Shown here in pieces: positions 37,391-60,960 of a DNA stretch of 64,000 bases. The notes below the pieces were generated by a model. That model worked only from the letters and a program-made list of their open reading frames with translations. It ran no database searches and was not told the origin of the DNA. How positions within the stretch are numbered: position 1 is the first letter of the stretch; each line of letters starts with the position of its first letter. A program made the position numbers and the translations under genes. The DNA comes from an uncultured Alphaproteobacteria bacterium (lineage in GTDB: Bacteria > Pseudomonadota > Alphaproteobacteria > Methylaequorales > Methylaequoraceae), in NCBI GenBank assembly GCA_902524895.1, contig CABZFH010000003.1:1-64000 (forward strand), written 5' to 3'.

Positions 37391-38123
37391 AAGTAAACTA
37401 TTTGAAGGCAAAGCTAAAATCATATTTGAAGGCAATCAACCAAATACACTGATACAACATTTTAAAGATGATGCAACTGCATTTAATAACAAAAAAAAGG
37501 GGAAAATACTTGGAAAGGGAAAAATAAATAATTTGATATCAGAGTTTTTAATGAAAAAGATATCAGAACTAAAAATTAAAACTCATTTTATAAAAAGAAT
37601 AAATATGCGTGAACAAATGATTCGTAAGCTTGATATAATTCCTTTGGAAGTTGTCATCAGAAATATTGCTACAGGGTCAATTGTAAAAAGATTAGGAGTT
37701 AATGAGGGTGAAAAATTTAAAGAACCAATTATCGAATTTTATTTGAAAAATGATCAACTTAATGACCCAATTGTTTCTCAAGAACACATTGAAGTATTTG
37801 AATGGGCTAGTCAAGATGAATTGAAAAAGATTATTTCTATTTCTAAAAAAATTAATAATTATTTATTAGATTTTTTCTTAATGAGAAATATTAAATTAAT
37901 AGATTTTAAACTTGAGTTTGGAAGATCATTTGAAAACAAAAAAGAAATAATGGTAGCTGACGAAATTAGTCCTGATAATTGTAGATTATGGGATTTAAAG
38001 ACTAATAAAAAACTTGATAAAGATAGGTTTAGACTAGATTTAGGTGATGTGGAAGAATCATATCAGGAAATAGCAAATAGACTAGGTATTTTATCTTCAA
38101 AAAAGACTAAAAGGGAATATTAA
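37380..38123 (+). CDS. purC: SAICAR synthetase
   Basis: Joins aspartate to CAIR. Motifs LFEGKAKIIFEG, IPLEVVIRNIATGSIVKRLG and IMVADEISPDNCRLWD are typical. At 247 residues it is the standard single-domain form. Runs directly into purS with no gap. Confidence 0.95.
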   Translation: MVNKSKLFEGKAKIIFEGNQPNTLIQHFKDDATAFNNKKKGKILGKGKINNLISEFLMKKISELKIKTHFIKRINMREQMIRKLDIIPLEVVIRNIATGSIVKRLGVNEGEKFKEPIIEFYLKNDQLNDPIVSQEHIEVFEWASQDELKKIISISKKINNYLLDFFLMRNIKLIDFKLEFGRSFENKKEIMVADEISPDNCRLWDLKTNKKLDKDRFRLDLGDVEESYQEIANRLGILSSKKTKREY

Positions 38124-38360
38124 ATGAAATTTAGAGTTTATGTGTCATTCAAAGAAGGAGTTTTAGATCCTGAGGCAGAAGCAATAAAAAAAACACTGGA
38201 TACTTGTGGTTTTACAGAGATTAGAAAATTATCTAGAGGTAAATTTTTTGATATTGATATTAAGGATAAATGTAAAAATAAAGAAGATATTGTTAAAAAA
38301 ATAAGTGATGAAGTTTTGTCTAATCCAATTATAGAAAATTTTAAAATTGAAAAATTATAA
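38124..38360 (+). CDS. purS: Phosphoribosylformylglycinamidine synthase subunit PurS
   Basis: Small bridging subunit (78 residues) that helps PurQ and PurL form the FGAM synthase complex. The start KFRVYVSFKEGVLDPEAEAIKKTL matches the family closely. It begins right after the purC stop and precedes purQ by three bases. Confidence 0.92.
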   Translation: MKFRVYVSFKEGVLDPEAEAIKKTLDTCGFTEIRKLSRGKFFDIDIKDKCKNKEDIVKKISDEVLSNPIIENFKIEKL

Positions 38361-38363
38361 GTT

Positions 38364-39050
38364 ATGGCTAAAAAACCATTAATTTCAATTATAATTTTTC
38401 CAGGGTCTAATTGTGATAGAGATTTAATAGTTGCGATCAAGAAAACTTTAAATGTTGAAACAAATATAATTTGGCATAATGAAAAAATAATTCCCAAAAG
38501 TGATATTATTTTCATTCCTGGCGGATTTTCTTACGGAGATTATTTAAGAGCTGGTATTTTAGCTACTAAATCACCTGCAATAAAAGAAGTAATACGATGG
38601 TCAAAAAAAGGAGTGAGAGTTATTGGAATATGTAATGGTTTTCAAATTTTGACAGAGTGTAAACTTTTACCGGGTACTTTAACAAAAAATATAAATCCAA
38701 GTTTTTTATGTAAAGATATTTACCTGAAACTAAATAAAAATAACAAACTAATAAAAAATATATCAAAAGAAAAATTAAAATTACCAATTGCACATTCTCA
38801 GGGGTGTTTTTATTGTGAAGAGGAACAATTAAAATTATTACAGGATAACAATCAAATTGCTTTTCAATATTGTGATGTTAATGGCAATATAAATAAAGAT
38901 AATAATCCTAATGGATCCTTGCTAAATATAGCTGGTGTGACAAATTTAAAACAAAATATATTAGGCATGATGCCACATCCTGAGCGCGCAATTGATCTTC
39001 AGGGTTTAAGTGATGGTAAATTTTTTTTCGAAGTTTTGAAACAATTATGA
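38364..39050 (+). CDS. purQ: FGAM synthase glutaminase subunit PurQ
   Basis: Class I glutamine amidotransferase that feeds ammonia to PurL. The nucleophile Cys is in [10 protein letters not shown] near residue 90 and the His/Glu pair in [10 protein letters not shown] near 208-213. Length 228 residues. Its stop overlaps the purL start as ATGA. Confidence 0.95.
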
Positions 39051-41230
39051 AAACTAAAATTACAGAAAATTTAATAAAAAGTCATAATCTTTCAAAAGAT
39101 GAATACAAATTGATATTAAAAATTCTAAAAAGAGAACCAAATCTTCTAGAATTGGGAATATTTTCAGTAATGTGGAGTGAACATTGTTCTTATAAATCAA
39201 CTAAAAAATGGCTTAAACAACTTCCAACAAAAGCAGAGTGGGTTATTTGTGGTCCGGGTGAAAATGCAGGAATAATCGATATTGGTGATAATGATGCAAT
39301 TGTTTTTAAAATGGAAAGTCATAATCATCCATCTTTTATTGAACCCTATCAAGGTGCAGCAACAGGTGTTGGTGGTATATTAAGGGATATTTTTACAATG
39401 GGTGCTCGCCCAATTGCGAATATAAATTCATTAAGATTTGGAGATCCTAAAAATTCAAAAACTAAGCATTTACTTAATGGTGTTGTTTCTGGTATTGGAG
39501 ATTATGGAAATTGTATAGGTGTTCCAACTGTTGGAGGGGAATGTTTTTTTCATAAATCGTATAATCATAATATTTTAGTAAATGCTATGACAGTTGGATT
39601 GGTTAAAAAAGAAAAAATTTTTTATTCTTCTGCTAAAGGAATTGGCTTCCCCATAATCTACGTTGGCGGAAAGACAGGCAGAGATGGAATTCATGGAGCT
39701 ACGATGGCATCTGCTGAGTTTGATGAAAAAAATAAAGATAAACGTCCACAAGTTCAAGTAGGTGATCCATTCAAAGAAAAGTTATTGTTAGAGGCTTGCT
39801 TAGAATTGATGAGCTCGGATGCAATTGTTGCAATTCAAGATATGGGAGCAGCTGGACTTACTTCTTCTTCATTCGAAATGGCATCAAAAGGAAATTGTGG
39901 TATCGAGTTAGAACTTGATAAAGTTCCTCAAAGAGAAACTAAGATGGAACCTTACGAAATAATGTTATCTGAAACTCAAGAAAGAATGTTAATGATAATC
40001 AACCCAAATTTTAAGGAAAAAACCGCAAAAGTTTTTAAAAAATGGGGTTTAGAATTTAGTGAAATTGGAAAAATTACAGATACAGGAATAATGAAAATTT
40101 ATTTTAAAGGTGAATTAAAAGCAACATTGCCTATAAAACCACTAGCTGATGCTGCACCTGAATATGACAGGCCGAGAACTAAAACTTTAAAGAAAAAGGA
40201 AAAAACTTTAAAAGATTTTAAAACAATAAATTTAAAACAAGCATTAATTAAAATAATGTCTAGCCCTAATCAATCCTCAAAAGAATGGGTTTTCAATCAA
40301 TACGATAGAAGTGTAATGGGGGATACCGTTGCAGATTCTCAAAAGTCTGATTCAGCAATTATTCGTATTCACAATACTAATAAAGCAGTGGCTATAACCT
40401 GTGATTGTAACCCGCTTTATTGTAATTCTGATCCTTATCGAGGAGCTCTACTCGCGGTAACTGAAACATGGAGAAATCTCTGTGCATCAGGAGCAATGCC
40501 AATGGCAATAACTGATAATTTAAATTTCGGTAATCCAGAAAAAAGAGAAATTATGTTCGAAATTGTTGAGTCTATAAAAGGAATTAGTGAAGCTTGTAAA
40601 AAACTAAAATATCCGGTTGTGTCAGGAAATGTTTCGCTCTATAACGAAACCGAAGGCAAATCTATTTATCCTACACCAGTTATTGGGGGTGTGGGTTTAA
40701 TTAAAAATTATAAAAATTTTGGGCGAATAAATCTTAAGAAAAATAAAACCATTTTTTTAATTGGGAAGACATACGGTCATATGAATCAGTCAGTTTATGA
40801 AAAAGAAATTATGGAAGTTGAAAGAGGCAAGCCACCAAAAGTCGACTTTAAAGAAGAAATAAAAAATGGTTTATTCATAAGAAAATTAATTGAGAAAAAT
40901 TTACTAGAAGGGTGTCATGACATTTCTGATGGAGGTTTGGTTGTGTGCTTATCTGAAATGGTAATTAATAGTAACATAGGTATGGAGATAAAAGTTCCAA
41001 AAACCTCACTCAGTTTTGAGGAATGGTTGTTTTCCGAAGACCAATCAAGATACGTGATTGTGCCTAAAAATAATGAAGAGATTGAATATCTTGCTTCAAT
41101 AGAAAATATTTCTATAAATAAATTAGGCAAGGCTGGAGGAAAAAAATTAATAATTAAAAATTGTCTTGAAATTGCAATAAAAGATCTTATTGATATTAAT
41201 AATAAATGGTTTTATGATTACTTGAGTTAA
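39047..41230 (+). CDS. purL: FGAM synthase subunit PurL
   Basis: ATP-dependent synthase subunit of the small (Bacillus-like) type, 727 residues. [16 protein letters not shown] near residue 44, the ATP-binding [23 protein letters not shown], and the second-half [17 protein letters not shown] are diagnostic. Works with PurS and PurQ encoded just upstream. bolA follows by two bases. Confidence 0.96.
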
Positions 41231-59222: not shown

Positions 59223-60374
59223 TTAACTTATTTGCAAACCTAGATTTTCGATTATCTGTGGTATGTTTTTTTTAAAATTAAAAAATCCTTTACGAGAAAA
59301 ACTCCAGCAATAAATATCTTCTTTTTTGTAAATATAATTTAAATTAATTTTATATTTTTTTTCACATTTTTTTAAATAATCATAATTTTCACCAACACAT
59401 GGATAAATAACGTCTAAATTATTTTCACTTATGATTGAAGAATCAAACTCTTTAAGTTTTATACACGTTTTACCATTAAATTCCCTACAGAAATCATCGA
59501 TGAGTTTTGATTTAAAGTTTAAAACATTTTCACTTAACTCTAAATTTCTAATTTTATTATCAAGTAATAAAATAATAATTTTTTCATATCTCTCAAAAAA
59601 ATCTTTCCTATCTAAAATATTTAGATCATTTTCAAATGAAATTAAAATATTACTCTTTTTTTTATGATTATATTTTGGTAACTCCTCTTCAATCTCATAG
59701 TTAACTTTTGGTATCAATGCTTTAGCTTGCTCATTTAGAATAATATTAGAAAATCTTCCACCCGTAAATTTCTCAATATTCCATGACTTAGCTACATAGT
59801 GTTTGCCAATTGTTTGTAAACCAGCAACCCATCTCCAGCTTAATGTGTTCGATGCTGCGTCACCATCATTTAAATATTTTAAAAATAGCTTAGCGCCTAA
59901 CTCCCATGGTAATTTTAGTGTAAATATCCAGATACTTGCGAACCACATTCGGGTATGATTGTGGAGATAGTTTTTATTTTTTAATTCTTCCATCCACTTA
60001 TTGAAACAATCTACGTTGGTCTTTCCACTGTAAGCATAAGAAAATCCTCTTGGCTCAATAATCTCATTCGTTGCATCAACATAGTCTTTCCAAACTTTCG
60101 GTCTTAATTCTAGCCAACCTTTCCAGTAGATTCTCCAAAAAACTTCGTGAACGAATTTTTCAACTTTTTCATATTTGAATTCTTTTAAAACTTCTTTCAA
60201 AATATAATATTCACTTATAATTCCATGTGAAATATACTTAGAAAGATGTGAGACACTATTTTTTTCTTTTTTACCAAAATCAAAGTTTCTCAACTGGCCA
60301 TACGAAGAAAGCTTATTATCAATAAATTCTCTTAGCTCTTTTTGTGATTGTAAATAATGTGTTGGATTATGCAT
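59223..60374 (-). CDS. Photolyase/cryptochrome-like flavoprotein with reversed domain order
   Basis: Residues 13-235 match the FAD-binding helical domain of photolyases/cryptochromes: HEVFWRIYWKGWLE, HNHTRMWFASIWIF (138-151), YLNDGDAASNTLSWRWVAG (167-185) and KFTGGRF. The usual N-terminal antenna domain is missing. Instead residues 240-380 form an alpha/beta region that resembles that domain: SNILISFENDLNILDRKDFF, IIILLLDN, and WSFSRKGFFNFKKNIPQI near its end. Total 383 residues. DNA repair or light signalling are both possible. Its end is four bases from the metallophosphoesterase start. Confidence 0.82.
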   Translation of the reverse strand: MHNPTHYLQSQKELREFIDNKLSSYGQLRNFDFGKKEKNSVSHLSKYISHGIISEYYILKEVLKEFKYEKVEKFVHEVFWRIYWKGWLELRPKVWKDYVDATNEIIEPRGFSYAYSGKTNVDCFNKWMEELKNKNYLHNHTRMWFASIWIFTLKLPWELGAKLFLKYLNDGDAASNTLSWRWVAGLQTIGKHYVAKSWNIEKFTGGRFSNIILNEQAKALIPKVNYEIEEELPKYNHKKKSNILISFENDLNILDRKDFFERYEKIIILLLDNKIRNLELSENVLNFKSKLIDDFCREFNGKTCIKLKEFDSSIISENNLDVIYPCVGENYDYLKKCEKKYKINLNYIYKKEDIYCWSFSRKGFFNFKKNIPQIIENLGLQIS

Positions 60375-60405: not shown

Positions 60406-60870
60406 TTACTTGCCGATAAAATAATCATCTTCAAAATTTCCACTCTTGGTTTTTCCATCTACATATTTTAAAGTGCCTTTACCGTGTCTTTTTCCAAACT
60501 TCCAAAATCCTTCGTAAATGACTCCATCAGGATATATATATATTCCAAAACCGTGTTTCTCTCCATTTCTAAATTCTCCTTTGAAGTTTGAACCATGTTC
60601 CCAACAATTAAATTCACCCATGCCACTTTCTTGCCCATTTAAAAATTCACCTCTATATGTTGCACCATCTGAATAAGTAAATGTTCCTTTACCATTATAG
60701 AGACCATTTTTGAATTCGCCTACATAAGCTGTTCCGTTTTTAGCTACCGATCCAATACAATCAGTCCACATCATATGGTTTTCACCTTTACACTTTAAGT
60801 TTTTAGTATCTGCATTCAAAAGACCAAAAAAAAACAAAATTAAAAAGGGACTTAAAAATATATTAAACAT
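60406..60870 (-). CDS. Secreted MORN-repeat protein
   Basis: 154 residues from ATG 60870, beginning with a signal peptide (MFNIFLSPFLILFFFGLLNA). Four to five MORN repeats follow: YVGEFKNGLYNGKGTFTY, YRGEFLNGQESGMGEF, FKGEFRNGEKHGFGIYIY, YEGFWKFGKRHGKGTLKY. An earlier TTG at 60912 would spoil the signal peptide. MORN repeats often bind lipids or proteins; the role is unknown. Confidence 0.8.
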   Translation of the reverse strand: MFNIFLSPFLILFFFGLLNADTKNLKCKGENHMMWTDCIGSVAKNGTAYVGEFKNGLYNGKGTFTYSDGATYRGEFLNGQESGMGEFNCWEHGSNFKGEFRNGEKHGFGIYIYPDGVIYEGFWKFGKRHGKGTLKYVDGKTKSGNFEDDYFIGK

Positions 60871-60960
60871 AAGAACTTTTTTTAATATTTTATAAGAATA
60901 TATATAGTACAAGTTGTAAAGAAAAACATAATTTACAATAAATTATTATAATTTAATCTT

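What the first reader, a model, noticed from the sequence alone, without database searches (positions are those of the whole stretch)
59223..60374. Photolyase homologue with FAD domain first and antenna-like domain last
Photolyases and cryptochromes normally run alpha/beta antenna domain, then FAD domain. Here the FAD domain begins at residue 13 and an alpha/beta segment (240-380) follows. Its first strand pattern (ILISFENDLNILDRKDFF) looks like the start of an antenna domain and WSFSRKGFFNFKKNIP looks like its end, which suggests a domain swap or circular permutation. I do not know a described protein with this order.
Basis: partly seen in the sequence, partly recalled or inferred. Interest (0 to 1): 0.65.

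Follow-up and report, generated by a model that had tools for sequence, protein, structure and literature searches.

The report
Short inverted-order photolyase (NewPHL/SPL type)
This marine bacterial gene encodes a light-driven DNA-repair enzyme whose two domains run in the reverse of the usual order, which is unusual but already described (the NewPHL, SPL or Phr7 photolyases), so it is an ordinary member of a known class.

Summary
The 383-aa ORF at 59223-60374 (-) has a photolyase FAD domain at its N-terminus (PF03441, E 1.4e-14) and an alpha/beta domain at residues ~240-380. The model is confident (pLDDT 93). All 80 relatives fetched have the same N-terminal FAD domain; all but one partial locus also align over the C-terminal domain. 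The claim that no protein with this order is described is wrong: it is the NewPHL / short photolyase-like (SPL) / Phr7 class, reported as CPD photolyases acting on single-stranded DNA with "inverted domain topology". Prochlorococcus homologues (44-47% identical), the genus in which Phr7 was named, match it end to end.

The FAD and CPD-contact residues of E. coli photolyase are conserved (one Arg is His). The third Trp of the usual triad is missing, as reported for the NewPHL of Dinoroseobacter.

The C-terminal domain has no detectable sequence similarity to PF00875. Its predicted fold is HUP/Rossmann-like, and its highest listed TM-score is to PhrB (6-4) photolyase (0.52-0.55), so an antenna origin is possible but unproven. 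Deinococcus plasmids carry a related reversed-order protein whose C-terminal domain does resemble an antenna domain.

New member of a known kind; low interest.

The parts
59223..60374 (-). NewPHL/SPL/Phr7-type short photolyase gene, 383 aa
59766..60359 (-). N-terminal FAD/catalytic domain, residues 6-203 (all helical)
   Evidence: PF03441 at residues 74-193; PDB photolyases by phmmer and Foldseek; hhalign 99.9%; helices 6-203 in the model
59226..59669 (-). C-terminal alpha/beta domain (the 'Z-domain' in the Phr7 literature), residues 236-383
   Evidence: model strands 243-349; no Pfam match; Foldseek HUP-like and PhrB TMq 0.52-0.55
59829..59837 (-). W180 to W182 (E. coli W382 and W384), next to the flavin
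   Evidence: invariant in 41 homologues
59946..59960 (-). N139-M143 motif NHTRM (E. coli N341-M345), FAD N5 site and lesion contacts
60132..60146 (-). E77 to R81 motif EVFWR (E. coli E274, W277, R278), CPD-contact residues

Best explanation
The gene encodes a NewPHL/SPL/Phr7-class photolyase: a flavoenzyme that most likely binds FAD in the N-terminal helical domain and, as FADH-, uses near-UV/blue light to split cyclobutane pyrimidine dimers, probably in single-stranded DNA. The C-terminal alpha/beta Z-domain takes the place of the shortened C-terminal part of the classical FAD domain and probably closes the flavin pocket; it is not shown to hold an antenna pigment. Shown here: architecture, conserved residues, fold, phylogenetic grouping. 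Inferred from characterised members: FAD binding, CPD repair, single-strand preference, pocket closure.
For: FAD domain identified by Pfam, PDB sequence search and Foldseek. Residues equivalent to E. coli E274, W277, N341, R344, M345, D372, D374, N378, W382, W384 and W359 are present and invariant in 41 homologues; the 'N395' equivalent asparagine is said to be conserved in NewPHL (PMC12083526). The third Trp of the triad (E. coli W306) falls in a gap, matching the 'mere Trp dyad' of D. shibae NewPHL (PMC8948257). End-to-end homologues at 44-47% identity in Prochlorococcus, where Phr7 is described as N-terminal FAD plus C-terminal Z-domain and equated with the single-strand CPD photolyase of D. 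shibae and M. mesophilicum (PMC9426592). Annotated plasmid homologues in Ruegeria and Rhizobiaceae, 31-34% identical over 95-99%. In the FAD-domain tree all reversed-order proteins fall on one side, apart from 26 classical photolyases (support 99/95).
Against: No biochemistry. The characterised D. shibae and M. mesophilicum sequences could not be fetched for direct comparison, and the primary paper is not held. E. coli R342 is H140 here, though invariant within the class. No solved structure of a NewPHL turned up by sequence.
Confidence: 0.93

Rival explanations
1. The C-terminal domain is a diverged true antenna domain (PF00875 lineage) that was moved to the C-terminus, so the protein is a permuted classical photolyase that may still bind a light-harvesting pigment.
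For: HUP/Rossmann-like fold; highest listed TM-scores are to PhrB photolyase (0.52-0.55). [quoted passage not shown] PMC9426592 calls the Z-domain an atypical short photolyase domain.
Against: No significant sequence match of the Z-domain to PF00875, to the classical antenna profile (E 0.13) or to the Deinococcus C-terminal domain (E 0.42). Lower Foldseek E-values go to phosphopantetheine adenylyltransferases, so generic HUP similarity suffices. The Deinococcus branch is very long.
Confidence: 0.3
2. A light sensor (cryptochrome-like) rather than a repair enzyme.
For: Same superfamily; the genome also has two conventional PF00875+PF03441 proteins and a DPRP/PhrB-like protein, so repair may be covered.
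Against: CPD-contact residues E77, W80, M143, W182 are invariant, and characterised class members repair CPDs (PMC9426592, PMC13274461).
Confidence: 0.05
3. Truncated or chimeric ORF, an assembly or mutation artefact.
For: None beyond the unusual order and length.
Against: 79 other loci align across both domains; the 90% identical L001 has the same neighbours; pLDDT 93 across the protein.
Confidence: 0.01

Closest known systems
NewPHL (Emmerich et al. 2020, NAR 48:12845; D. shibae, M. mesophilicum) = SPL (Xu et al. 2021, MBE 38:4505)
   Same: Inverted domain order, short length, conserved N/FAD switch, Trp dyad instead of triad, alphaproteobacterial distribution.
   Different: No difference established; this one is from an uncultivated AT-rich marine alphaproteobacterium and its activity is untested.
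Prochlorococcus Phr7 (PMC9426592)
   Same: N-terminal FAD domain plus C-terminal Z-domain, about 380 aa, 44-47% identical end to end, no FeS cysteine set.
   Different: Host phylum only.
Phr6 or Phr4/Phr5 of Cyanobium and marine Synechococcus, and the Deinococcus plasmid proteins (L085, L129, L130, L131)
   Same: Reversed domain order, related FAD domain.
   Different: They carry a cysteine cluster and a recognisable photolyase (antenna) domain at the C-terminus; this protein has neither.
Class I CPD photolyase (E. coli PhrB, 1dnp)
   Same: FAD domain and most active-site residues.
   Different: Opposite domain order, no PF00875, shortened C-terminal part of the FAD domain, no W306 equivalent.

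Membership tests
NewPHL / SPL / Phr7 | FAD domain N-terminal, C-terminal alpha/beta Z-domain | tested here: met
   definition from PMC9426592 and PMC13274461
NewPHL / SPL / Phr7 | End-to-end homology to named members | tested here: met
   Prochlorococcus (Phr7) at 44-47% over residues ~8-374; the D. shibae and M. mesophilicum sequences themselves were not available
NewPHL / SPL / Phr7 | Trp dyad in place of the Trp triad | tested here: met
   W180 and W157 present, W306 equivalent in a gap; dyad reported for D. shibae (PMC8948257)
NewPHL / SPL / Phr7 | No FeS-cluster cysteines | tested here: met
   the six cysteines are scattered, none invariant
NewPHL / SPL / Phr7 | Light-dependent CPD repair on single-stranded DNA | not testable with these tools
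   needs purified protein
Classical photolyase/cryptochrome (PF00875 + PF03441) | N-terminal PF00875 antenna domain before the FAD domain | tested here: not met
   no PF00875 match in this protein or in 40 homologues at E up to 10; FAD domain starts near residue 6-13
Phr6 / reversed photolyase with antenna domain | C-terminal PF00875-type domain and FeS cysteines | tested here: not met

The most novel reading that the evidence does not exclude
The Z-domain of NewPHLs is a decayed antenna domain, and the class arose by permutation of a photolyase through a reversed-order form with a true antenna domain, like the one still found on Deinococcus plasmids and as Phr6 in Cyanobium. This would argue against NewPHLs being the ancestral form of the superfamily.
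Probability: 0.25. Interest if true: 0.4.

Novelty: new member of a known kind. Interest (0 to 1): 0.13.

Why it matters
Mostly a correct annotation: genes called 'FAD-binding domain-containing protein' across marine SAR11, SAR116, gammaproteobacteria and Prochlorococcus look like NewPHL/SPL repair enzymes. The wider question, whether the C-terminal Z-domain descends from the antenna domain, bears on where photolyases and cryptochromes came from.

Tried and rejected
Artefact or chimera: rejected, 79 two-domain homologues. PF00875 at the C-terminus: searched in 41 homologues at E up to 10, none; hhalign against classical antenna and Deinococcus C-terminal profiles not significant. PDB profile search with the C-terminal domain alone: only chance hits. 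The primary papers (gkaa1147, PMC7736829, PMC8476157) are not in the library, so their content is cited through later papers. Conserved gene neighbourhood as a clue: neighbours are kept only in the 90% identical relative L001 and partly in L025, so it adds nothing.

Full report
Observation. The ORF at 59223-60374 on the minus strand is intact and 383 aa long. Pfam FAD_binding_7 (PF03441) matches residues 74-193, profile positions 1-126 of 203. phmmer aligns residues 13-186 with photolyase 4u63 at 233-409, and residues 4-192 with E. coli photolyase at 201-394. The catalytic domain is therefore at the N-terminus, and about 190 residues follow it.

Structure. AlphaFold2 with 41 homologues gives mean pLDDT 93.1 and pTM 0.91: a helical domain at residues 6-203, a linker, and a five-strand alpha/beta domain at ~243-377. 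The full model matches photolyases over ~200-240 columns (E down to 5e-7). The C-terminal domain folded alone (residues 236-383, pLDDT 83) matches phosphopantetheine adenylyltransferases (best E 9e-4, TMq 0.41-0.47) and PhrB (6-4) photolyase (E 0.008-0.048, TMq 0.52-0.55, the highest TM-scores in the list). Both belong to the HUP group of Rossmann-like folds (own knowledge). The list does not give target positions; since PhrB's only alpha/beta domain is its N-terminal antenna domain (own knowledge), the match is inferred to be there.

Family. A scan of bacterial and archaeal genomes returned 80 relatives at 36-90% identity, from SAR11, SAR116, other alpha- and gammaproteobacteria and Prochlorococcus. 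All have the N-terminal FAD domain and all but the contig-cut L079 align over both domains. The N-terminal half is better conserved than the C-terminal one (50-63% against 16-51% identity, leaving out the near-identical L001). Annotated plasmid copies exist in Ruegeria sp. TM1040 and Rhizobiaceae.

Literature. [quoted passage not shown] 2020. PMC9426592 describes Prochlorococcus Phr7 as an N-terminal FAD domain plus a C-terminal Z-domain and equates it with the CPD photolyase of D. shibae and M. mesophilicum. The Prochlorococcus sequences found here (L056, L060-L065, L067, L068, L071) match end to end at 44-47%.

Residues. Mapped on E. coli photolyase through the printed alignment: E274=E77, W277=W80, R278=R81, N341=N139, R342=H140, R344=R142, M345=M143, W359=W157, D372=D170, D374=D172, N378=N176, W382=W180, W384=W182. 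All are invariant in 41 homologues. W306 has no counterpart, which leaves a Trp dyad as in D. shibae NewPHL (PMC8948257). There is no conserved cysteine set for an FeS cluster. The roles of these residues in FAD binding, CPD contact and electron transfer are from general knowledge of E. coli photolyase.

Phylogeny. A tree of FAD domains (72 rows) puts the 41 reversed-order proteins and the plasmid copies on one side, away from 26 classical photolyases (99/95), with this protein next to L001 and within the marine group that includes Prochlorococcus. The tree is midpoint-rooted and has two very long branches (PhrB-like fragment, Deinococcus), so it supports grouping, not ancestry.

Is the C-terminal domain an antenna domain? 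Not shown. No PF00875 match in any of 41 members. A positive contrast: the related Deinococcus plasmid proteins have the FAD domain first and a C-terminal domain that matches the classical antenna profile at 92%, E 6e-7, and PF00875 weakly, below its curated cut-off. These resemble Phr6 of Cyanobium (PMC9426592). They make an antenna origin of the Z-domain plausible; the Z-domain does not match them significantly either (E 0.42).

Mechanism. Most likely: FADH- in the N-terminal domain absorbs near-UV/blue light directly, transfers an electron to a CPD flipped into the pocket lined by E77, W80, M143 and W182, and gets it back after ring splitting; the Trp dyad serves photoreduction of oxidised flavin; the Z-domain replaces the missing C-terminal part of the classical FAD domain and shields the flavin. 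Architecture and residues are shown here; chemistry and single-strand preference are inferred from characterised class members.

Genome. The assembly also holds a class I-like photolyase and a DPRP/PhrB-like protein side by side (C2), and another PF00875+PF03441 protein (C6). The PF03441 and PF00875 searches therefore give four superfamily genes in all. Most Prochlorococcus HL strains likewise carry four, phr1-3 plus phr7 (PMC9426592).

Verdict. Observation confirmed; interpretation partly supported; new member of a known class; low interest.

Noticed in passing
L085:1926-3296, L129:301-1674, L130:292-1710: Deinococcus plasmid proteins with N-terminal FAD domain, a CxxC-type cysteine cluster and a C-terminal domain that matches the classical antenna profile (hhalign 92%, E 6e-7; PF00875 20 bits for L085): a reversed-order photolyase like cyanobacterial Phr6, outside cyanobacteria.
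   Followed up: partly
L131:196-969 and 966-1487: In Deinococcus sp. QL22 the FAD domain and the C-terminal domain are two ORFs overlapping by 4 bases, reminiscent of the phr4/phr5 split in marine Synechococcus.
   Followed up: no
G000:C2 about 37700-40310 (L082): Class I-like photolyase gene directly followed on the same strand by a DPRP/PhrB-like (possible 6-4) photolyase gene in the window's own genome.
   Followed up: partly
G000:C6 61340-62704 (L088:1423-2883): A third conventional PF00875+PF03441 protein of 486 aa that scores far below every NCBIfam photolyase/cryptochrome subclass cut-off; its subclass is unresolved.
   Followed up: no
L083:1477-4079 and L084:135-2676: In Ruegeria TM1040 and Peteryoungia the NewPHL gene sits beside an AarF/UbiB kinase-family gene, on different sides; a possible linkage in Roseobacter/Rhizobiaceae plasmids.
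   Followed up: no
60406-60912 (-): Small MORN-repeat protein with a hydrophobic N-terminus just upstream of the photolyase gene; conserved only in close relatives.
   Followed up: no
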